Assembly (NCBI RefSeq): GCF_002007215.1
Contig: NZ_MUHX01000005.1
Coordinates: forward strand, 62,001 to 126,000
From: Pyramidobacter sp. C12-8
Lineage (GTDB): Bacteria; Synergistota; Synergistia; Synergistales; Dethiosulfovibrionaceae
Length of the DNA: 64,000 nucleotides
Reading direction: 5' to 3'
Shown here: one piece after another, positions 10,174-21,776 of the stretch
How the letters are laid out: the number at the start of each line of letters is the position of its first letter
How positions within the stretch are numbered: the first letter of the stretch is position 1
Program-made: the position numbers and the translations under genes
The notes under the pieces: generated by a model
The model's input: only the letters and a program-made list of their open reading frames with translations
Told to the model about the DNA's origin: nothing
Database searches by the model: none

Positions 10174-10914
10174 TCAGACCAACGGCTGCCGCGGACTGCG
10201 GACGTTCAGCATTTCTTCTCCCGCCAATTCTATGAGGTAATAATGTTCGTCGATCGCTTCAAGCCCCGCCGCCTTGTCGTTGTGGAGAAGGCTTTCGTAT
10301 ATTTTCGTATGGGCGTTGTGCAGGCGGCGCATGCCCCGCTCTGGCATCGCGCCGAGCCCCCGCGTCACCCAGCGTCCGTAGATTTCGAAGATCGCGGACA
10401 TCAGCATCGTCATAACTCCGTTGTCCGTCATTTCGGTCAGCAGATAATGGAACCTCTGATCCAGCCTGATCTGCGTCTCGATATTCTCTTGCGGGAAAGC
10501 GCCGAGGACTTCTTTCATCTCCGCCAGCTCGAGCCTTTTGTTCCGATTGCGGAACGCGAGGTCGTAAACTGCCAGCTCCATGCTCTTTCGAAAAGCGCCG
10601 ACGTCGCGCGGCCCGACGATCCCCAGCATCCGCATGACGTCGAACGTGTGGGTGAAGCCGTTCGATACACTTCCGAATATATAGGGTCCCGACCCGGAAC
10701 GTTTTTCGACGAGGCAGAGAGTCTCCATCTCGCGAAGGGCCGCGGCGGACTCGTTTTCGGAAACGCCGAGCGCCGCGGCGATCCTGCCGGCGGACGGAAG
10801 TTCCTCTCCGACCTTTATCCGCCCGGCGCGCGCCTGCTCGAAAACGTAATCCAGGATCCGCGCAAAGCGCTCTGGAACGTTTCTTTTCATCTCGGCCGCC
10901 GTCAGTATCTTCAT
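10174..10914 (-). CDS. GntR-family transcriptional regulator B (FadR/FCD subfamily)
   Basis: A 246-residue paralogue of regulator A. The winged helix contains GEELPSAGRIAAALGVSENESAAALREMETLCLVEKRSGSG; the usual PSER-Arg of the first motif is PSAG here, and the recognition helix is divergent. The FCD domain has DQRFHYLLTE, HNAHTKIYESLLHNDKAAG and AIDEHYYL, with candidate metal/ligand His residues. The ATG at 10912-10914 follows GAAAGGAGGA; an open frame extends further upstream but lacks a better start. Hydrolase B lies just upstream on the same strand, separated by a terminator. No TGGTNNNACCA site was found before this gene. Confidence 0.85.
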   Translation of the reverse strand: MKILTAAEMKRNVPERFARILDYVFEQARAGRIKVGEELPSAGRIAAALGVSENESAAALREMETLCLVEKRSGSGPYIFGSVSNGFTHTFDVMRMLGIVGPRDVGAFRKSMELAVYDLAFRNRNKRLELAEMKEVLGAFPQENIETQIRLDQRFHYLLTEMTDNGVMTMLMSAIFEIYGRWVTRGLGAMPERGMRRLHNAHTKIYESLLHNDKAAGLEAIDEHYYLIELAGEEMLNVRSPRQPLV

Positions 10915-10952
10915 GTCCCATCCTCCTTTCCGCCTCTTCCGGCGCGGCGCGC

Positions 10953-11000: not shown

Positions 11001-11882
11001 CTACTTGTTCAGGAAGTCGAGGATCGTCTCCCTGGCCTTCTTGTAGTAATCCTTCTCGAGGTACATGCAGTGGCCGGCGCCGTGCAGGTGAAGAAGCTGA
11101 GAACCTTCTGGCAGTTCCTTGGCCGCTTGGTAGACGCGGTCGATATTCACATAGAAATCGCAGTCTCCGGTAACGATCAGAACGGGGCACGGGACTTTCT
11201 TGGTTTCGACCGACCATTTGTCGCCGCAGCCGAGAATTTCCCTGTTTCCGCCGTTCGGGCGGCCGTGCTTGCCGTCGATCTTGTAGACATGGTCGCACCA
11301 AAGTCCTACGATTTCGGGCTCGACAGTGTCCATGTCGACGTCTTCATCGCTGCCGGGAAGATGCTGGAATACCCGGACGACGTACGGGTACTGCAGGAAA
11401 GTAAACGGATCCTTGCACTCGGCGGGAGGGAAAGCGCCGCCCAGGAACGGTCCCATCCAGACGATCTTGCTGATATGGGTACTCTTGTCGAGTTCGGCGG
11501 CCTTCGCCGTCGTCATGGTTCCCCAGGACCAGCCGACGACGGGGACCTTCTCGACCTTCTGGAGTTCGCAGATTTTCTCCACAGCGCAGAGGATATCTTT
11601 CGCAGCGTTCTCGGTCGTGACGTCGAAACCATTTTCGTATTCTTCCGAACGTCCGTATCCGCCGAGATCAACGCGCCACACCGTGTAGCCGTTTTTCGCA
11701 AAATATTCGCAGACGCTGTAATCCTTGTACTTGATGTCAAAAACGTGCTGGGTGTAGGTTAAACCGTGTACGAGCAGTACATTCTTGTCGCCCCAGCTGG
11801 CGGGACAGTCAAATTTCGTAAAGTACAGTTTCTTGCCATTGTCTTTCCTTGCCAGATCGATCACTTCGCAATTGTACTTCAT
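11001..11882 (-). CDS. Alpha/beta hydrolase B
   Basis: A 293-residue cytoplasmic alpha/beta-hydrolase, paralogue of hydrolase A. LLVHGLTYTQH is at about 36-46, the nucleophile elbow GWSWG gives Ser119, the acid is likely in VTGDCDFYVNIDR and the His in LHGAGHCMYLEKDYY. It lies 154 bp downstream of the GrdB-like selenoprotein on the same strand with no obvious terminator between, so it may be the third gene of that operon; its own terminator follows. The start ATG has AAAGGAG 10 nt upstream. A role in hydrolysing an ester or thioester made or used by the Grd-like pair is an inference from position only. Confidence 0.85.
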   Translation of the reverse strand: MKYNCEVIDLARKDNGKKLYFTKFDCPASWGDKNVLLVHGLTYTQHVFDIKYKDYSVCEYFAKNGYTVWRVDLGGYGRSEEYENGFDVTTENAAKDILCAVEKICELQKVEKVPVVGWSWGTMTTAKAAELDKSTHISKIVWMGPFLGGAFPPAECKDPFTFLQYPYVVRVFQHLPGSDEDVDMDTVEPEIVGLWCDHVYKIDGKHGRPNGGNREILGCGDKWSVETKKVPCPVLIVTGDCDFYVNIDRVYQAAKELPEGSQLLHLHGAGHCMYLEKDYYKKARETILDFLNK

Positions 11883-12036: not shown

Positions 12037-13356
12037 TTACTCCTCGATAAGCGTGTGCTGTCCGGCTTCCGGTTTTTCTTCCAGCATGTCGAGAGCTTTT
12101 TCCAGGCGTTCCTCGCGATATTTGAATTCCTGCTCCTTCGGCAGTTTCGGGTTCCCAAAGACGTGCAGGACGCTGTTGCCCCTGAGGATCCTGTGACTGC
12201 CGATCCCCTTGGAAATTTCCGTCAGGTTTGTCACGTGGATGACCGGGATGCCGGCGCGTTCGATCTCTTTCGTCATCACTGCACCGCAGCGCGAGGACGT
12301 GCCTCACGTGCTGGTGAGGATGACCGCGTCGACGTTCTGCTTGCGCAGGTCCGCGGCGATCTCGCTGCCGAATTTTTTGCCCATTTCCATCGGCGTCATC
12401 ACGCCGGCCGTCGTGTAGTACGAATCCAGCAATTCGCCGATCACGCCTTTTTTCTTGAGATCGAGCGCCGCGTCCACGGGGACGAGGCGGTTTGGGTCGT
12501 CCAGCACGAAAGCGTTGTTGTAACCCTGGTGGCTGACTTCGTAGTCTTTCGCGTCAAGGCGCGTCACATCACCGATGCTGTATTTGTTGAAGGTCTTGGA
12601 GTTGGTCGGCACCATGCTGTCCGGATTGCCCTTGGGCACGAGGCCCCCGTCCGTGACCAGCGCGAGTTTTATCTCTTTCAGCGGTTTATGCAGCACCGGA
12701 AGCGGGATCTCCTCGTGATTCGGCATGCGAACTTCCGTCGCGAAGGGGCGGCCGTAATACTTGGCAAGCAGCATATCCACTCCCCTGCTGCTTGCGGGAA
12801 CGGAATAATCGATCTCCACGGCGGGACCGGAGCCATGATAGCCTTCCTTCTTCCCGTCGCCGATTGGGCTCCTCTCCGCAAGCCGTTTGGCGAACGCGGC
12901 CAGCTTGGGAAGCGTTTTCCGCATGTCCGCCGCGCTGTTGTCGGTCTGCAGGATGTAGCAGCGGTCCTTGTAAAGGTCCGTGCCGGGATTTTCGGAGTAC
13001 AGCGCCGTCACCGCGGGGAGCTTCATCTTCTCCGTCGCGTAGGCGGCCGAAGCGCCGCAGCCGATCCCGTAACGTCCCGCGTTAAAGCCTGGGCCGGCGA
13101 TGAACAGCTGGGCGCCGTACTTTCGGAGCAGCTTGTCGAATTCGGCGAGGACCTCGTCCGTTTTTTCCGCGATCGTGTTGTCGCCGCAAATAATCGTTGC
13201 AACGATCTTATAATCGTCCCCCAGCTCTTTCTGGAGCCCGAGGCCGGGGCCTGCCGGCCCCTCTTTGACGGAGATGCCGACGCTCGCGGTATCTTCCGCC
13301 CCCATGCCGGCGAAGAACTGATTGATGTAATGTACTACTCTGATCGGTTCAGACAT
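12037..13356 (-). CDS. GrdB-like selenoprotein (glycine/sarcosine/betaine reductase component B gamma family), in-frame UGA = Sec351
   Basis: A 439-residue protein if UGA at 12304-12306 is read as selenocysteine. The frame before the stop (MSEPIRVVHYINQFFAGMGAED..., FIAGPGFNAGRYGIGCG, TDGGLVPKGNPDSM, KDYEVSHQGYNNAF) and after it (GTSSRCGAVMTKEIERAGIP) both match the family, and total length equals GrdB. Sec351 falls where known GrdB has Sec, as ILTST-Sec-G-T. The resolving Cys three residues later in GrdB is Ser354 here; Cys357 is kept. GrdB binds a substrate and passes its carbon group to the selenol of GrdA. The start follows GGAGG, 21 bp after the GrdE-like stop. No GrdA, C or D is nearby, so the substrate is probably not glycine. 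Confidence 0.9.
12277..12306 (-). promoter_or_regulatory. Selenocysteine UGA codon with candidate SECIS hairpin
   Basis: UGA is at 12304-12306. Twelve nucleotides later the mRNA can form a 6-bp stem, CGCUGC (12291-12286) with GCAGUG (12282-12277, one G-U pair), closed by a GGU loop. Position and loop are consistent with a bacterial SECIS inside the coding region. Confidence 0.7.
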
Positions 13357-13376
13357 GTTGATTCCTCCTTTCCCGG

Positions 13377-14645
13377 TCATTTGGAGTAGGGAAGGTCCGC
13401 GTCCGTCGTCACGTAACAGTCGCCGAGCTGCGACCAGATCCCCTGATACGCGAAGTTCGTCGTATGCGTGAACGGGCCTCGCGCGTCCACGCCCAGCAGC
13501 GAAGGCACGTTCGTCCCCTCGCCGATCAGGCGCTCCACGCGCGGGTGATGCAGATCGTAGTTCCGGCCGCTGTTGATGACCGCGTCGATCCTTGGGTCGG
13601 CGATGACCAGCATGTCGCCCGGCCTGTCGTTGGAAACGGCGCTCAGATTCATCACGCACCGCATGCCCATCTTTTCCTCCCAGTTGAAGGCGAGCGCCTG
13701 ATCCAGCTGGCAGTGCCCCATACCGGACTTGTTGACGATGACGCAGTCCGCCTTCAGCGTTTCCTTGCAGAGCGTTGCCGTCATCATGCCCATGGTGTCC
13801 TTGCCGTCGATTTTCATGACGTTGTTGGAGAAGACCACGCCGGCAAAATCAATATCTTTGCCGTGGCGTTCCATCAGTTCCTTGATGTAGATCTCTTCCT
13901 GCAGGAAGTAGTTCGGCTCCCAGTAGCGCCAGATCATCGCTCCGTCCAATATCTCGGTCGGCTGCACGACGATCGGCAGGAAGTTCAGCGCGCTCTGCCC
14001 GTACATCAGGAAGTTCCAGGTATCGTGCGAAGCCATGTGGACGACGTGGTACGCGACCCGGGGAAGCGGCTTGCCGTCGGGGCCCGGGCCTACCGGACCG
14101 AGCTGGTACGTTTTCGTCTCGTCCGGGGTTTTGCCGATGCCGAGTTTTGCCAGACGGACGTTGAGCGTCAGGGACGCGTATTTCAGCGCTTCCGCATAGC
14201 TCAGGTCGCTGACCCCTTCCGCCGGTTCGGCGTCCAGGATCACGTGGAAGTGGCGCGAAAAGTTCGTGTACCTGGCGCACTCTCCGCCCATGTCAAGATA
14301 GTATTTGACGTTGCACTTGGCGTAGTAAATGTCGGAAACGACCACGCCCTTGAGCGCCACCGTGCGTCCCTCGCCCACGGGGGCGAGTTTCCCCCAAATG
14401 CCGGGATACGACGTCTCGGGCGCGTCCGCTTTGCACCGGGGCTGCATGACGTCGTGGATGCCGAGGATGCGGCAGTTTTCGCCGGGACGGGCAAGTTTGA
14501 TGTCCAGCTTTCCGAACAGCTCGCTGCCCGCCATATCCAGCAGTTCCTGTTTGTCGATGGTCAGAACGCCGTGATCGAGCGCCGTTCGGTCCCCGAACTT
14601 CACGTCTTTAATGTGGATGTAATCAATCTGCAATCTCTTGCTCAT
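13377..14645 (-). CDS. GrdE-like protein (component B alpha/beta family) apparently lacking the pyruvoyl cysteine
   Basis: A 422-residue homologue of the GrdE proprotein of glycine reductase. Family blocks include IKDVKFGDRTALDHGVLTI, DIKLARPGENCRI, VGEGRTVALKGVVV, VQPTEILDGAM, ELMERHGKDIDFAGV and DPRIDAVINSGR. In characterised GrdE the chain is cut before a cysteine near residue 242, directly after the PTEVMDGA block, giving the substrate-binding pyruvoyl group. Here the same place (residues 234-246) reads DGAMIWRYWEPNY: no Cys or Ser, and a shorter loop. Self-cleavage is therefore unlikely by the known route. The ATG at 14643-14645 follows AAGGAGAGG. First gene of an operon with the Sec GrdB-like gene 21 bp downstream. 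The GrdE comparison is from memory. Confidence 0.85.
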   Translation of the reverse strand: MSKRLQIDYIHIKDVKFGDRTALDHGVLTIDKQELLDMAGSELFGKLDIKLARPGENCRILGIHDVMQPRCKADAPETSYPGIWGKLAPVGEGRTVALKGVVVSDIYYAKCNVKYYLDMGGECARYTNFSRHFHVILDAEPAEGVSDLSYAEALKYASLTLNVRLAKLGIGKTPDETKTYQLGPVGPGPDGKPLPRVAYHVVHMASHDTWNFLMYGQSALNFLPIVVQPTEILDGAMIWRYWEPNYFLQEEIYIKELMERHGKDIDFAGVVFSNNVMKIDGKDTMGMMTATLCKETLKADCVIVNKSGMGHCQLDQALAFNWEEKMGMRCVMNLSAVSNDRPGDMLVIADPRIDAVINSGRNYDLHHPRVERLIGEGTNVPSLLGVDARGPFTHTTNFAYQGIWSQLGDCYVTTDADLPYSK

Positions 14646-14723
14646 TGATTTCCCTCTCCTTTCCGTTTGCATCGTCGCACAATGTTTCGCCGGAACGCTT
14701 TCATACGTACATTCTCTATCCGC

Positions 14724-14813: not shown

Positions 14814-15635
14814 TTAGACGGCGTCCTCGCACAGCCTGCGCAGCGCCGAGCAGACGATCCGCCGGCGGCGGCGGTACTCTTCCGGACGCGAAAGCCCCGC
14901 GAAACCGATCGGGCTTCCCACGCTGGCTCCCTTTTCGACGTGCCGAACGCCTGCGTTCCACGCGATCTCCGTAAGGTTCGCGATCTGCGCGGCCGGGATC
15001 CCGCGATCTTCCAGCGCCAGTACGATGCAGGCTCCGCACCGCGTGCTGGTCCCGCAGGTCGAAACGACAAGCACGGCGTCGATTGGACAAGCCGACGCGC
15101 AGTCGGCGATTTCCCTCCCTATCCGGCGCGCCGTTTCGGACGGCATCATAACGCCTGTCGTCGATAGAAAACGCGGGTATACGCCGCCGATCGTTCCCTC
15201 CCGGCTCATCTCCCGCAAAATATCCAGCGGAAGCAGGCGGTTCGGGTCTTCGTCGACGTCGCCGTGGTCGTACCCCTGATGGGACACTTCGTATTTGTCC
15301 GCTTCGAACCGCTCCGCCCAGCCGAAGCCATAGGCATGGAACTCTCGCGCGTTGGACGGCGGCAGGCAGTCGGGATTCCCTTTCGGCACCAGCCCCCCGT
15401 CCGTGACCATCATGATCCGCGCCGCCGCGAGCGGAACGGAAAGAACCGGCGTCACGTGCTCTTCCGGTACGGGCATTTTCACTTCCGAGCAAAACTTTTC
15501 CCCGTAATACTTGGCGAGCAGCATGTCGAGACAGCGTTTGGGCGCCGGCGTATGGTACGCGATGAACGGGATGACGCTATCCCGCGCCTCGCCCGATTCC
15601 TCCGTCACAGAATAAATGATTTCCGCCTTGTTCAT
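14814..15635 (-). CDS. N-terminally truncated GrdB paralogue with Cys replacing Sec
   Basis: A 273-residue paralogue of the neighbouring selenoprotein, aligned to its C-terminal part from LDMLLAKYYGEKFCSEVKMP onward; the N-terminal domain of about 190 residues is absent. It keeps TDGGLVPKGNPDCLPPSNA, DKYEVSHQGYDHGD and STTGVMMPSE. The active-site segment is VVSTCGTSTRCGAC: Cys stands at the Sec position, Ser replaces the next Cys of GrdB, and the third Cys is kept. Its ATG overlaps the TetR stop (ATGA), so the two are translationally coupled. In domain content it resembles the 26-kDa PrdB subunit of proline reductase. It may be an enzyme subunit or a redox partner; function is open. Confidence 0.82.
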   Translation of the reverse strand: MNKAEIIYSVTEESGEARDSVIPFIAYHTPAPKRCLDMLLAKYYGEKFCSEVKMPVPEEHVTPVLSVPLAAARIMMVTDGGLVPKGNPDCLPPSNAREFHAYGFGWAERFEADKYEVSHQGYDHGDVDEDPNRLLPLDILREMSREGTIGGVYPRFLSTTGVMMPSETARRIGREIADCASACPIDAVLVVSTCGTSTRCGACIVLALEDRGIPAAQIANLTEIAWNAGVRHVEKGASVGSPIGFAGLSRPEEYRRRRRIVCSALRRLCEDAV

Positions 15636-16259
15636 GACGCCTGTACTCCCCCAATGTTTTTCGTCGCGCCGCTGCGTTTCGATATCTGTTTATTTTCGGA
15701 CATGATGGCGTACATCTCGCTCTGTACGCGGAATATCTCGCTGACTTGCTCGAAATAACTCCTGTAATTGTCGCGCATCCCTGCATGAACCCAGTCCCGC
15801 ATCAGCCCCACCAGAGCGTGAGCGTTCATTTTCGCGTAAACGGTGATCTCGTACTCGCTCAGCTTGAACCCGGACGCCGCATACACCATGTCGATGTTGA
15901 GTTTCCACAGTTCGAAGAAAAAATCCGTCAGATGCTGGTACAACGAATCCTGACCGTCGTATTGCATGCAGGGGTAGTAAAACTTCTTTCTCCGGTACAT
16001 AAAACCGCACATGGACACAAACGTTTCGGGGATGCGCATGGGATCGTCGTAATTTTCCACGTTCTTCGCCATGTCGTCGTCCAGGATCCAGTTCATCAGC
16101 TCGTACTTGTCCTTGAAGTGATAATAGAATGTATTCCGGCTGATGCCGCAGGCTTCGGTGACGTCCTTTACGGGGATCTTCGAAAACTGCCTCTCCAGGA
16201 GAAGACTCTCCAGCGTCGAAGCGATCGCTTCCTTCGTACGTAATAAGATTTACAGACAT
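15632..16259 (-). pseudogene. TetR-family regulator with an apparent +1 frameshift near its start
   Basis: The downstream frame (from about 16240) encodes RTKEAIASTLESLLLERQF, then DVTEACGISRNTFYYHFKDKYELMN, the TetR helix-turn-helix, and a 150-residue helical C-terminal domain of the TetR-like AcrR/dihydroxyacetone-kinase-regulator type. That frame has no start codon before an in-frame TAA. A good start (ATG 16257-16259, AAGGAG upstream) lies in another frame; removing one base around 16241 would join MSVNLI directly to RTKEAIA. Either the gene is inactivated, or it uses recoding, or there is a one-base sequence error. Its stop overlaps the start of the Cys-GrdB gene, and lctP is divergent. 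Confidence 0.75.
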
Positions 16260-16648: not shown

Positions 16649-18370
16649 ATGTATGCATTGATTGCCGCCGTACCGATCTTGCTCACTATCGTCTTCATGG
16701 TCTTTCTGAACTGGTCCGCCAAACGGTCGCTGGTTATTTCATGGCTCGCGGCTTTTGCCGTCGCGTGCTCCGTCTGGGGCATGGGGATCGGAGAAGCCGC
16801 CGCCCGAACGGTCGCTGGCTTCCTGGCTTCTTTCGAAACAAGCGCCATCATTTTCGGGGCAATCCTGCTGATGAACGTGCTCAAGCAGTCGGGCGCCATG
16901 GCTTCCATCAACGGAATGTTCTCCGGCATCACCGAAGACGCGCGTCTTCAGGCTATCATCGTTGGCTACTGCTTCGCCGGATTTATCGAGGGAGCGGCGG
17001 GGTTCGGCACGCCGGCCGCCTTGGGCGCGCCAATTCTGATCAGCCTGGGGTTTCCTCCTCTCGCCGCGGCGGCGATCTGCCTCGTCTGCAACTCGACGCC
17101 TGTCAACCCCGGCCCCGTCGGCGTGCCGCTGCTCACGGCTTCCAAAGTCGTTGCGGACGCGGTAAAACATCTCGGCGGCGATCCCGAAAAATTCACGACG
17201 GTGCTGACGCGCTGGGTCTGCATCCCGAACATGATCGGCGGTCTGTTTATCATCATGGCCATCGTCTTCATGATGTGTAAGGTGTTCGGGAAGAACCGTT
17301 CGTTCAGGGACGCCGTCCCTGCCGTTCCGTTTTGCCTACTCACCGGCGTCGTCGTCGGCTCGATCTACATCGTCATGTCGTTCTTCGCCGCTCCCGAATT
17401 GATTTCCATGACGGCTTTCCTCGGCGGCATGATCGTGATGATGTTCTGCGCGAAAAAAGGCGTCTGCGTTCCCAAAAAGGTCTGGACCTTTGACGGCTAC
17501 AAAGAATGGGGTGAGTTCTCCTGGCAGTCCACCACAGTCGTCACATCCGTTAAGGACAAGGGCATGAAACCGCTTCTGGCCTGGGGGCCCTATATCGTCA
17601 TCGGCGTTATCCTGGTGCTGACGAGACTGAACGCTTTCGGCCTCAAAACCCTTTTTAACAATGATCCGTTCATCCTGCGCGTCGGGAATATCCTCGGCTT
17701 CGAGGAAATCGGCTGGAACTTCAAGTTCCTGTACAACCCCGGCATCATGCCCTTCGTCCTCGTCGCAATCCTGACGGTCCCGCTGCACCGCATGTCGCGG
17801 GAAGAGGCCAAAATCGCCGTCGCAGATTCCGTGAAAAACTGGTCCGGCGCGGCCACAGCCTTGCTGTTCGGCGTCGCCATGGTCAACCTGTACCGCTACA
17901 CGTCGAGCGCGCCAATCGGAGCAGCCATTGCCGGAGTCGCGGCGGACGCGGAGTTTACGTTCAAGAACAGCTCGATGCTCTACGTCATGGCCGACGCACT
18001 GGCGAAGCTCTTCCAGGGGACTTACTTCATTATCGCCCCGCTCATCGGCGTTCTCGGAGCGTTCATGTCGGGTTCCTGCACGGTGTCAAACACGCTGTTC
18101 GCTTCGTTGCAGTTCGAGACCGCGACCCTCGTCGGCTTGTCCCAGGTCCTCATCGTGGCGCTCCAGACCATGGGCGGCGGCATCGGCAACATGATCTGCG
18201 TCAACAACATCGTCGCAGTCTGCGCCACCACTGGCACGAACGGCAACGAAGGCAAGCTGATCCGCACGAACATCTTTCCCTGCCTGATCTATGCCGCCGT
18301 CGTCGCAACGGTCGTCGGGCTGCTACTGGCCGCCGGCGTCGATCCGATGCCGGAACTGCTGGCAAAATAA
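16649..18370 (+). CDS. lctP: L-lactate permease family transporter (LctP/LldP)
   Basis: A 573-residue integral membrane protein with about 13-14 hydrophobic segments, typical in length for LctP/GlcA proton symporters of lactate and glycolate. Signature segments are GFIEGAAGFGTPAALGAPIL near residue 110, CNSTPVNPGPVGVPLLTA and, near the C-terminus, GSCTVSNTLFASLQFETA. The start ATG lies behind GAAAGGAG. It is divergent from the TetR gene and the Grd-like operons, which suggests a 2-hydroxy or other short carboxylate could be the imported substrate of that locus; this is positional inference. It is followed by a 210-bp spacer and a strong terminator. Confidence 0.88.
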   Translation: MYALIAAVPILLTIVFMVFLNWSAKRSLVISWLAAFAVACSVWGMGIGEAAARTVAGFLASFETSAIIFGAILLMNVLKQSGAMASINGMFSGITEDARLQAIIVGYCFAGFIEGAAGFGTPAALGAPILISLGFPPLAAAAICLVCNSTPVNPGPVGVPLLTASKVVADAVKHLGGDPEKFTTVLTRWVCIPNMIGGLFIIMAIVFMMCKVFGKNRSFRDAVPAVPFCLLTGVVVGSIYIVMSFFAAPELISMTAFLGGMIVMMFCAKKGVCVPKKVWTFDGYKEWGEFSWQSTTVVTSVKDKGMKPLLAWGPYIVIGVILVLTRLNAFGLKTLFNNDPFILRVGNILGFEEIGWNFKFLYNPGIMPFVLVAILTVPLHRMSREEAKIAVADSVKNWSGAATALLFGVAMVNLYRYTSSAPIGAAIAGVAADAEFTFKNSSMLYVMADALAKLFQGTYFIIAPLIGVLGAFMSGSCTVSNTLFASLQFETATLVGLSQVLIVALQTMGGGIGNMICVNNIVAVCATTGTNGNEGKLIRTNIFPCLIYAAVVATVVGLLLAAGVDPMPELLAK

Positions 18371-18732: not shown

Positions 18733-19260
18733 TCACATGGCTTGCCGCATGTACTCTTCGATGACGCAGGGGGCCTGCAGGGTCAGGCTTTTTTTCACGT
18801 CGAGGATGCGCTGATTGGACGAGCCGCGAAAACGCAGCGAGAGGTCGCGCTTGTCGCGCTCGAAGCGTCCGTCGACGAGCACGTCGATCTGCTCGAGCAG
18901 GGCCATGCGGTCCGCCCAGGCCGGATTCTTGCGGTCGGTCAGCTGCTCGAAGGTGAAGCCGGTGAAGGCCCACACGTTCAGTCCGCGCCGGCGCGCCGCG
19001 CGGGCCACTTCGGCCAGGGCGCGCGCCTGCAGGAACGGTTCGCCGCCGGAGAGCGTCAGCCCCTGCTGCAAATGCAGCGAATCGAGCTGGGCGATCAGAT
19101 CGGCCGAATCCATCTCGAAGCCGCCGAAGGGGTTGTGCGTGCAGGGATTGTGGCAGCCCGGGCAGTTGTGAAAGCATCCCTGCGCCCAGATCACCGCCCG
19201 CAGCCCCGGCCCGTCGACGATGCTGTCGCGGGTCATCGGACTGGCGAGGCGGATCTTCAT
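18733..19260 (-). CDS. nrdG: Anaerobic ribonucleotide reductase activating enzyme
   Basis: A 175-residue radical-SAM protein that uses S-adenosylmethionine and a 4Fe-4S cluster to make the glycyl radical on NrdD. The cluster motif is CFHNCPGC (C-x3-C-x2-C) near residues 29-36, preceded by DGPGLRAVIWAQG and followed by LTLSGGEPFLQ, which includes the SAM-contacting GGE. Its start ATG (19258-19260) overlaps the nrdD stop as ATGA, so the two genes are translationally coupled, the usual arrangement. Length is normal for NrdG. It acts in the cytoplasm under anoxic conditions. Confidence 0.95.
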   Translation of the reverse strand: MKIRLASPMTRDSIVDGPGLRAVIWAQGCFHNCPGCHNPCTHNPFGGFEMDSADLIAQLDSLHLQQGLTLSGGEPFLQARALAEVARAARRRGLNVWAFTGFTFEQLTDRKNPAWADRMALLEQIDVLVDGRFERDKRDLSLRFRGSSNQRILDVKKSLTLQAPCVIEEYMRQAM

Positions 19261-21641
19261 TTTCCGCCCGCCTCTTCCTCCGTTTGACACTGATTGTGCT
19301 TGACGCGGTCGCGGACCTCGGCGCGTTTGGCGTTGTTGAAGCGGTCCAGCGTTCCCACGAGGTAGCCCGTGATGCGGCGGATGCGCTCGAAGCCGACGGG
19401 GCCGTCGCTCTCATGCCGTCCGCAGTGAGGGCACACGTCGCCGGGGATGATGCCCGTGTAGCCGCAGACGGGATCGCGGTCGACGGGGTGATTGACGCTG
19501 CCGTAGCCGACTCCTGCCTCTTTCATGGCGCGCACGATGGCTTCGAAGGCTTCGGGATTGTTGGCTCCCAGACCGTCCAGTTCCACGTAGCTGATGTGGC
19601 CGCCGTTGGTCAGCGCGTGGTAGGGCGCTTCGCGGGCGATCTTGTCGAAGACGCCGATCTTGTAATAGACGGGCACGTGGAAGGAATTGGTGTAGTACTC
19701 GCGGTCGGTGATGCCGGGGATCGCGCCGAACTTTTTGGCGTCGAGGCGGGTGAAACGTCCCGACAATCCCTCCGCCGGCGTGGCGATGAGCGAGAAGTTC
19801 AGGTCGTACTGTTCCGAAGCCTGATCCATGCGCTCTCTCATGTGGCGGACGATCTTCAGCCCCAGCTCCTGAGACTCGGCGCTCTCGCCGTGATGCTTGC
19901 CCGTCAGGGCCACCAGGCACTCGGCCAGGCCGATAAAACCGACCGTCAGCGTGCCCTGGTGGATCACGTCGCGCAGTTCGTCCTCGTCGTTCATGCCGTC
20001 GGAACCTTTCCACACGCCCTGTCCCATCAGGAAGGGAAAGTTCTTGACGCGGCGGCGTCCCTGGATTTCCATGCGTTCCAGCAGCTGGTCGACGACCAGG
20101 TCGATCTTGCCGTCGAGATCTTTGAAGAAGGCGTCGAGATCGGTCGCGCCGCCCAGCGCCTGCCCGTGGACGATGCCCAGGCGGGGCAGATTGATGGTGG
20201 TGAACGACAGATTGCCGCGGCCGCTCACCGTCGATTCGCCGCAGCGGTTGCCGACCACCCGCGTGCGGCAGCCCATGTAGGTGGCTTCCGTGTCGGGGTC
20301 GCCGGGCTTGTAGTATTGGGCGTTGAAGGGCGCGTCGAGGAAGCTGAAATTTGGGAAAAGCCGCTTGGAAGTGACGCGGCACGAAAGCTGAAGCAGGTCG
20401 TAGTTGGGGTCGCCGGGATTGTAGTTGACGCCCTCCTTGACCTTGAAGATGAGGATCGGGAAGATCGGCGTCTCGCCGTTGCCCAGTCCCTTTTCGGTCG
20501 CCAGCAGCAGGTTGCGCGTGACCATGCGCCCTTCCTCGCTGACGTCGGTGCCGAAGTTGATGCTCGAGAAGGGGACCTGCGCGCCGGCGCGCGAATGCAT
20601 CGTGTTGAGGTTGTGGATGAAGGCTTCCATGGCCTGATAGGTGCGGTGGTCCGTTTCGGCGAGGGCTTCCTTGCGGGCGAAAGCCTGAAGTTTGCCCAGC
20701 TCCGCCTCGCCGGTTTTCAGCGACGCGGCCAAGATGTTCCGCTCGGCCTCGTCCCGTTCGGCGTCGTCCGTCAGGCTGATGGCACGCCCCGTTTCGGTTT
20801 CGGCGCGGGCTTCCGCCTCTTTGACGGCGGCCTTCGCGTCGAGGTCGCAAAGCAGTTCCAACGCCTTGGCGAGATTGCTCACGTACAGCTTGCGGAACGT
20901 CTTGCGCACGCCGTCGGCGATGCCGTAGTCGAAATACGGGATGCTCTGGCCGCCGTGCTGATCGTTCTGATTGCTCTGGATGGCGATGGCCGCCAGCGCC
21001 GCGTAGCTCATCACGTCCTGCGGCTCGCGCAGGAAACCGTGCCCCGTCGAGAAGCCGCCCTTGAACAGCTTGCGGATGTCGATCTGGCAGCAGGTCAGCG
21101 TGCCCATGTTGAGGAAGTCCATGTCGTGGATGTGGATGTCGCCCTCGTCGTGCGCCCTGGCGTGGGCGGGATGGATCACGTGCGTCTTGCAGAACTCGCG
21201 CGAGACGGCGCTGCCGTATTCCAGCATCGTGCCCATGGCCGTGTTGCCGTTGATGTTGGCGTTTTCGCGCTTCACGTCGGCGGTCTTGGCGTCGGCGAAG
21301 GTGATCTCCTCGATGGCCTTCATCAGGCGGGTGTGGGAGTCGCGCACGCGCGTGCGTTCGTTGCGGTAGGTGATGTAGGCCTCGCTGGTGCGGGCGTGCC
21401 CGTTTTCGATCAGCACCTTGACCACCATGTCCTGCACGTCCTCGACGCTGGGCGAGCCGGAGGCGTACTTTTCGTTGAGGCGGCGCACGACCTGCGACGT
21501 CAGCCCCTCGGCGATGCGGAAATCGGCGGCGGTTCCCTCTTTCTCCGCCACGGCGGAGGCGGCGAGAAAAATAGCGCGGGTGATGCGGTCTTCGTTGAAG
21601 GGCGCCAGACGGCCGTCCCTCTTCTTGATGGTCTCGATCAC
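19257..21641 (-). CDS. nrdD: Anaerobic (class III) ribonucleoside-triphosphate reductase
   Basis: A 794-residue glycyl-radical enzyme reducing ribonucleotides to deoxyribonucleotides without oxygen. An N-terminal ATP-cone (KRDGRLAPFNEDRITRAIFLAA) spans about the first 95 residues. The catalytic part has NINGNTAMGTMLEYGSA and DIHIHDMDFLNMGTLTCCQID. The C-terminus has the zinc site CGYTGIIPGDVCPHCGR and the radical loop RRITGYLVGTLDRFNNAK with the radical Gly. A charged insertion of roughly 50 residues (about 285-340) makes it longer than usual. The GTG at 21639-21641 is preferred as start because GGAAAGAGAGG precedes it; the open frame extends upstream without a better ribosome site. Confidence 0.93.
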   Translation of the reverse strand: MIETIKKRDGRLAPFNEDRITRAIFLAASAVAEKEGTAADFRIAEGLTSQVVRRLNEKYASGSPSVEDVQDMVVKVLIENGHARTSEAYITYRNERTRVRDSHTRLMKAIEEITFADAKTADVKRENANINGNTAMGTMLEYGSAVSREFCKTHVIHPAHARAHDEGDIHIHDMDFLNMGTLTCCQIDIRKLFKGGFSTGHGFLREPQDVMSYAALAAIAIQSNQNDQHGGQSIPYFDYGIADGVRKTFRKLYVSNLAKALELLCDLDAKAAVKEAEARAETETGRAISLTDDAERDEAERNILAASLKTGEAELGKLQAFARKEALAETDHRTYQAMEAFIHNLNTMHSRAGAQVPFSSINFGTDVSEEGRMVTRNLLLATEKGLGNGETPIFPILIFKVKEGVNYNPGDPNYDLLQLSCRVTSKRLFPNFSFLDAPFNAQYYKPGDPDTEATYMGCRTRVVGNRCGESTVSGRGNLSFTTINLPRLGIVHGQALGGATDLDAFFKDLDGKIDLVVDQLLERMEIQGRRRVKNFPFLMGQGVWKGSDGMNDEDELRDVIHQGTLTVGFIGLAECLVALTGKHHGESAESQELGLKIVRHMRERMDQASEQYDLNFSLIATPAEGLSGRFTRLDAKKFGAIPGITDREYYTNSFHVPVYYKIGVFDKIAREAPYHALTNGGHISYVELDGLGANNPEAFEAIVRAMKEAGVGYGSVNHPVDRDPVCGYTGIIPGDVCPHCGRHESDGPVGFERIRRITGYLVGTLDRFNNAKRAEVRDRVKHNQCQTEEEAGGK

Positions 21642-21776
21642 TTGAAAGGCCTCTCTTTCCAAGAGCGAAATGCGGCGCCCGCAGCGGGCGCGCGAAAAAC
21701 GGGACGAAGCGGACAGGCTTGCCCGGGATTTTTCGCTGCCATCATACACCATAAAAACGATCTCGTAAAGACAAAA

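What the first reader, a model, noticed from the sequence alone, without database searches (positions are those of the whole stretch)
12037..14645. Grd-like reductase pair with Sec but no pyruvoyl site: candidate new selenoenzyme system
The GrdE-like protein is collinear with GrdE, but the segment after PTEILDGA (residues 234-246) reads MIWRYWEPNY where GrdE has the self-cleaving Cys that makes the pyruvoyl group. Residue 242 is Trp. The GrdB-like partner keeps Sec. Pyruvoyl binds the amino group of glycine, sarcosine or betaine-type substrates; its loss suggests a substrate without a reactive amine, perhaps a short carboxylate taken up by the divergent LctP-type carrier. GrdA, GrdC and GrdD are missing locally. 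The conserved operon, Sec codon and separate regulators argue against decay.
Basis: partly seen in the sequence, partly recalled or inferred. Interest (0 to 1): 0.88.

Follow-up and report, generated by a model that had tools for sequence, protein, structure and literature searches.

The report
Fluoroacetate-reductase (FarEB) selenoenzyme pair
The gene pair is a variant of the glycine-reductase selenoenzyme that was described in 2023 as the enzyme gut bacteria use to strip fluorine from the poison fluoroacetate, so its missing pyruvoyl site is real but already reported, while its locus here carries a conserved regulator/sensor-like pair and a lactate-type carrier that the published account does not include.

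Summary
The GrdE-like protein (13377-14645, minus strand) reads DGAMIWRYWEPNY where canonical GrdE, including two in this genome, has the pyruvoyl-forming Asn-Cys; no Cys or Ser replaces it. Its GrdB-like partner is read through a UGA (Sec351, 12304-12306) with a conserved SECIS-like hairpin. The system is not new: the protein scores 935 bits against NCBIfam NF053623 'fluoroacetate reductase subunit FarE' (cut-off 675), and Leong et al. 2023 describe farACEB in Cloacibacillus and Pyramidobacter, stating that FarE lacks the pyruvoyl cysteines and FarB the CxxC. GrdA is not missing: it lies 449 bases beyond the window, and in a Clostridiaceae genome farEB directly follows trxA-grdA-grdC-grdD. 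Apparently undescribed: a locus form with an LctP carrier instead of FarA, shared with Lachnospiraceae; and a DhaS-like TetR regulator paired with a half-length GrdB paralogue that keeps Cys at the Sec position (21 of 21 loci), possibly a substrate sensor. No Pyramidobacter genome has the CrcB fluoride exporter, and hydrolases recur beside farEB, so the everyday substrate may not be fluoroacetate. Best reading: Sec attacks X-CH2-COO- without a Schiff base and passes carboxymethyl to GrdA.

The parts
13377..14645 (-). farE-like gene (start Met10 of the longer ORF 13377-14672): GrdE-type subunit without the pyruvoyl cleavage site
   Evidence: NF053623 FarE 935 bits, cut-off 675; PF09338 252 bits; profile starts at residue 10
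13917..13937 (-). codons of MIWRYWE (residues 246-252) at the place of the cleaved Asn-Cys of GrdE
   Evidence: alignments; R249, Y250, W251, E252 invariant in 19 FarE and absent from 9 GrdE-type rows
12037..13356 (-). farB-like gene, selenoprotein B homologue, 439 aa with UGA as Sec
   Evidence: PF07355 426 bits; TIGR01918 402 bits; UGA in every complete FarB
12304..12306 (-). in-frame UGA, Sec351, motif STUGTSSRCG (first Cys of the GrdB UxxCxxC is Ser)
   Evidence: canonical STUGTCTRCG in the same genome
12277..12291 (-). SECIS-like hairpin 15 nt after the UGA, apical GGU loop
   Evidence: conserved in 17 FarB sequences, 3 of 6 pairs with double-sided compensatory change
14814..15635 (-). 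half-length GrdB paralogue (C-terminal domain only) with Cys at the Sec position
   Evidence: PF07355 positions 181-347, 145 bits; Cys in 21 of 21 loci
15632..16259 (-). DhaS-like TetR-family regulator; frameshifted here by a 4-base insertion near 16237-16240
   Evidence: PF14278, TIGR02366 38 bits; intact in same species G118 and in G116
16649..18370 (+). LctP-family permease, divergent from the TetR gene; presumed carrier of the substrate
   Evidence: PF02652 321 bits; beside farEB in 13 of 30 loci
11001..11882 (-). serine alpha/beta hydrolase (GWSWG) directly downstream of farB
   Evidence: PF00561; homologue beside farEB in 7 of 30 loci
10174..10926 (-). GntR/FCD-family regulator
   Evidence: PF07729, PF00392
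9278..9982 (-). second GntR/FCD-family regulator
   Evidence: PF00392, PF07729
7881..8780 (-). second alpha/beta hydrolase, paralogue of 11001-11882
   Evidence: PF00561
7116..7736 (-). DsbA-like thiol oxidoreductase (CEWC)
   Evidence: PF01323 91 bits; beside farEB in 8 of 30 loci

Best explanation
FarE and FarB form the substrate-specific protein B of a glycine-reductase-type system whose substrate has the form X-CH2-COO- with a leaving group X that is not a free amine; fluoroacetate is the one substrate with experimental support. FarE stays uncleaved and serves as binding scaffold. The Sec351 selenolate of FarB attacks the methylene carbon directly, X leaves (F- for fluoroacetate), and the carboxymethyl-selenoether is handed to GrdA, then to GrdC/GrdD, giving acetyl phosphate and ATP. 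LctP brings the substrate in. Shown here: family membership, loss of the cleavage site, UGA with SECIS-like hairpin, purifying selection, presence of GrdA, an operon grdA-grdC-grdD-farE-farB in a relative. From the literature: whole-cell fluoride release by Cloacibacillus and Pyramidobacter piscolens and induction of far by fluoroacetate in C. porcorum. Inferred: the attack chemistry, the transport role of LctP, the substrate in this strain.
For: NF053623 FarE equivalog 935 bits. Clean score gap between FarE (668-943 bits) and all other GrdE (221 or less); one clade, support 100/100. Leong 2023 reports missing pyruvoyl Cys in FarE and missing CxxC in FarB, about 5000-fold induction by fluoroacetate but not by glycine, fluoride release by P. 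piscolens. FarE-FarB adjacent in 30 of 30 loci. GrdA in 15 of 16 FarE genomes, the exception being 75% complete. L052: trxA-grdA-grdC-grdD-farE-farB. SelB present. Genus Pyramidobacter from G119:C241 = L051.
Against: To my knowledge no one has purified or deleted FarEB; the assignment rests on transcription, whole-cell assays and comparison. No CrcB in any of six Pyramidobacter genomes and no fluoride riboswitch in this one. The window's FarE (76% identical to the C. porcorum-like FarE) is in another subclade, with LctP instead of FarA and without FarC. Leong et al. themselves suggest another preferred substrate.
Confidence: 0.8

Rival explanations
1. Same chemistry, but the physiological substrate of the LctP-type FarEB is another gut carboxylate (for example one freed by a neighbouring hydrolase), and fluoroacetate turnover is a side activity. 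(A refinement of the best explanation rather than its opposite.)
For: No CrcB in Pyramidobacter, CrcB in both Cloacibacillus-type genomes; only 2 of 9 FarE-bearing Synergistota have CrcB against 34 of 188 in the phylum; serine alpha/beta hydrolases, M20D amidohydrolases, amidohydrolase-family genes and a lactate racemase recur beside farEB; spread over gut Firmicutes that presumably rarely meet fluoroacetate; P. piscolens activity 70% lower.
Against: A CLC-type channel is present and could export fluoride; hydrolases differ between lineages and may be unrelated; only fluoroacetate has been tested.
Confidence: 0.45
2. FarEB is a glycine/sarcosine-type reductase whose carbonyl comes from elsewhere, for example a Ser of STUG turned into formylglycine by the radical SAM protein FarC, so the substrate is an amine.
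For: Proposed by Leong et al.; FarC homologues lie near farEB in 5 of 30 loci.
Against: Most loci, including this one, have no FarC; the STUG Ser is also present in canonical GrdB that already has a pyruvoyl partner.
Confidence: 0.07
3. The pair is a decaying, inactive GrdEB paralogue.
For: Loss of the catalytic Cys; frameshift in the adjacent TetR gene of this assembly.
Against: dN/dS 0.08-0.09; identical change across several phyla; UGA and hairpin kept; transcriptional induction in a relative.
Confidence: 0.03

Closest known systems
Fluoroacetate reductase FarACEB of Cloacibacillus porcorum MFA1 (Leong et al. 2023, PMC10838667; NCBIfam NF053623)
   Same: FarE without pyruvoyl cysteines, FarB selenoprotein without CxxC, adjacent genes; the paper names Pyramidobacter piscolens as a carrier
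   Different: No FarA (MFS) or FarC (radical SAM) here; LctP carrier, alpha/beta hydrolases and DsbA-like protein instead; separate FarE subclade, 76% identity. TetR plus half-length GrdB occur in both forms but are not in the published operon
Glycine reductase protein B (GrdE/GrdB)
   Same: Collinear sequence, Sec in STUG, handover to GrdA
   Different: FarE lacks the Asn-Cys cleavage site; 28% identity to the GrdE proteins of this genome; FarB has SSRC for CTRC
Betaine reductase GrdH/GrdI
   Same: Its substrate cannot form a Schiff base either; the GrdE-type partner of the betaine GrdH-like protein in this genome (L066) likewise lacks Asn-Cys (SGSFMPTSSKIS)
   Different: Different clade; 27% identity to FarE; the L066 partner best matches betaine GrdH (670 bits, cut-off 775)
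D-proline reductase PrdA/PrdB
   Same: Sec subunit homologous to GrdB; half-length PrdB resembles the short GrdB paralogue in domain content
   Different: FarE only 26 bits against PrdA (cut-off 700)

Membership tests
FarE (NF053623) | score above the curated cut-off of 675 bits | tested here: met
   935 bits
FarE (NF053623) | no pyruvoyl-forming cysteines | tested here: met
Fluoroacetate reductase FarEB | adjacent GrdB-type selenoprotein without the CxxC | tested here: met
   STUGTSSRCG, UGA conserved
Fluoroacetate reductase FarACEB | farA antiporter and farC radical SAM genes in the operon | tested here: not met
   absent from the window locus; published as absent in P. piscolens too, so not required for membership
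Fluoroacetate reductase FarEB | releases fluoride from fluoroacetate | not testable with these tools
   only whole-cell data in the literature
Glycine/sarcosine reductase GrdE/GrdG | Asn-Cys self-cleavage site giving a pyruvoyl group | tested here: not met
Glycine/sarcosine reductase GrdE/GrdG | NCBIfam GrdG cut-off 780 bits | tested here: not met
   178 bits
D-proline reductase PrdA | TIGR04480 cut-off 700 bits | tested here: not met
   26 bits
Betaine reductase GrdH/GrdI | selenoprotein partner above the betaine GrdH cut-off of 775 bits | tested here: not met
   FarB 381 bits against NF040795

The most novel reading that the evidence does not exclude
The LctP-type farEB of gut anaerobes reduces an unidentified natural amine-free carboxylate, and its expression is controlled by a sensor evolved from the enzyme itself: the half-length GrdB paralogue, which always keeps Cys in place of Sec, is alkylated by or binds the substrate and acts as co-regulator of the DhaS-like TetR protein encoded with it, as the DhaK paralogue DhaQ does for DhaS in Lactococcus (DhaS/DhaQ from memory, not verified here).
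Probability: 0.35. Interest if true: 0.65.

Novelty: already known. Interest (0 to 1): 0.4.

Why it matters
FarEB is one of few biological routes that break an aliphatic C-F bond by reduction, and it couples this to ATP through the glycine-reductase core. The survey finds the family in Lachnospiraceae, Oscillospiraceae, Clostridiaceae, Atopobiaceae, a Deltaproteobacteria/Myxococcota bin and Synergistota, so it is a widespread trait of anaerobes rather than a rumen curiosity. The conserved neighbours (LctP, TetR with the Cys-bearing short GrdB, hydrolases) offer concrete handles on the natural substrate and on how fluoroacetate induces the operon, and suggest that the reported lack of a transporter in P. 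piscolens needs revisiting.

Tried and rejected
No solved structure is related by sequence, and a Foldseek search of the FarE model (pLDDT 84.6) gave no match at E below 0.001, so no structural analogue of the pocket could be used. A GrdE model (pLDDT 80.7) has low confidence around the cleavage loop (block mean 56) while the FarE segment is confident (85-87); not taken further. The short GrdB was first suspected to be a fragment; its conservation in 21 loci ruled that out. FarE of L050 first looked interrupted; the stop lies upstream of the start. The alpha/beta hydrolases were considered as hydrolytic fluoroacetate dehalogenases; their nucleophile motif GWSWG has Ser, not the Asp of those enzymes (family knowledge). 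No paper on FarE outside Synergistota was found in the held library; the 2025 study of human gut defluorination concerns HAD dehalogenases. The window's strain could not be named; only the genus was fixed. A literature check of the DhaS/DhaQ precedent found no suitable paper.

Full report
Observation. Alignment with the three other PF09338 proteins of the same genome and with 21 more Synergistota proteins shows that the GrdE motif SGNCVSACDKN is replaced by WRYW with a six-residue deletion. No Cys or Ser remains in the segment. The partner gene 12037-13356 (-) reads through UGA at residue 351.

Identity. NCBIfam NF053623, 'fluoroacetate reductase subunit FarE' (equivalog), matches with 935 bits against a cut-off of 675. 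Leong et al. 2023 (PMC10838667) identified farACEB in Cloacibacillus porcorum MFA1, saw about 5000-fold induction by fluoroacetate and not by glycine, found the operon in C. evryensis and Pyramidobacter piscolens, measured fluoride release by all three, and stated that FarE lacks the two cysteines for pyruvoyl formation and FarB lacks the CxxC. The window's genus is Pyramidobacter: contig G119:C241 (7997 bases, 'same genus') matches JAEEUD010000074.1 of a Pyramidobacter MAG (same length and same FarE match). The assembly carries a single FarE locus without farA or farC, which fits the published description of P. piscolens, though the strain could not be named.

Survey. In 188 Synergistota genomes seven pass the FarE cut-off and two more score just below it (669 bits); the next best GrdE scores 221 bits. 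A scan of genome contigs found 21 loci, nearly all in Lachnospiraceae and other Clostridia, with an Olsenella and a Deltaproteobacteria/Myxococcota bin. A tree of 30 FarE rows with three GrdE-type rows gives one FarE clade (100/100); the window groups with Firmicutes loci that carry LctP, while the C. porcorum-like FarE (L060, gene order farA-farC-farE-farB) groups with MFS-type loci, among them a second locus of the window's own species (L058). Transfer between phyla is the simplest reading. All 28 FarE rows that could be read have the changed segment.

Selenocysteine. Every complete FarB keeps the UGA; LctP-type loci mostly read STUGTSSRCG, MFS-clade loci STUGTSSRGG, against STUGTCTRCG in a canonical GrdB of the same genome. 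A hairpin 15 nt downstream with a GGU apical loop shows compensatory changes at three of six pairs among 17 sequences; the region is also coding, so some covariation could be indirect. SelB is present. dN/dS against a sister species is 0.077 for FarE and 0.093 for FarB (NG86, one pair of species).

Coupling to protein A and C. GrdA is at G000:C144:126449, 449 bases beyond the window, and is present in 15 of 16 FarE genomes examined. In Clostridiaceae bacterium BL-3 (L052) the order is trxA-grdA(Sec)-grdC-grdD-farE-farB (the grdC frame is short there, 290 aa against a model of 477). This operon is genomic support for handover of a carboxymethyl group to GrdA.

Neighbours. Among 30 loci: LctP within 7 kb in 13, FarA-type MFS in 6, FarC-type radical SAM in 5, alpha/beta hydrolase in 7, M20D amidohydrolase in 6, DsbA-like in 8. 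A TetR-family regulator with weak similarity to DhaS and a half-length GrdB paralogue occur together in 21; the paralogue has Cys at the Sec position in all 21. The pair belongs to both locus types but is not in the published operon. A role as substrate sensor is inferred, by analogy with DhaS/DhaQ recalled from memory. In this assembly the TetR gene has a 4-base insertion near 16237-16240, absent from the same species (G118) and a sister species.

Substrate. For fluoroacetate the leaving group needs no Schiff base, which accounts for the lost pyruvoyl; the betaine-type protein of the same genome (L066) also lacks Asn-Cys. Against fluoroacetate as the usual substrate: CrcB occurs in the two Cloacibacillus-type genomes but in none of six Pyramidobacter genomes, and no fluoride riboswitch was found here; a CLC protein is present and might serve. 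Recurrent hydrolases hint at a substrate released from a conjugate, but they differ between lineages.

Verdict. Real, conserved and already described in its essentials; the LctP locus form and the Cys-bearing GrdB/TetR pair are the parts that look undescribed.

Noticed in passing
window 16237-16240: Four-base insertion frameshifts the TetR-family gene beside farEB in this assembly; the same species (G118, L057) and a sister species (L056) have it intact. Strain variant or assembly error.
   Followed up: yes
window 14814-15635: Half-length GrdB paralogue with Cys in the Sec position, conserved with a TetR gene in 21 farEB loci of several phyla.
   Followed up: partly
L066:7996-9300: A second GrdE-type protein of this genome, partner of a betaine GrdH-like selenoprotein, also lacks the Asn-Cys site (SGSFMPTSSKIS).
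   Followed up: partly
L019:1501-2733: GrdE-like protein of another Synergistota genome with an unusual segment AHCGGFRCVTTY at the cleavage position.
   Followed up: no
L058 (G118:C1:2647000-2665000): The window's species has in another assembly a second, MFS-type farEB locus with DsbA-like, TetR and short GrdB genes.
   Followed up: partly
L061:6971-8248: Nickel-dependent lactate racemase (LarA, 575 bits) directly upstream of farE, with a TRAP transporter DctM gene nearby.
   Followed up: no
window 18733-21752 (-): Genes that look like anaerobic ribonucleotide reductase and its activating enzyme next to the LctP gene; ordinary, judged from the sequence only.
   Followed up: no
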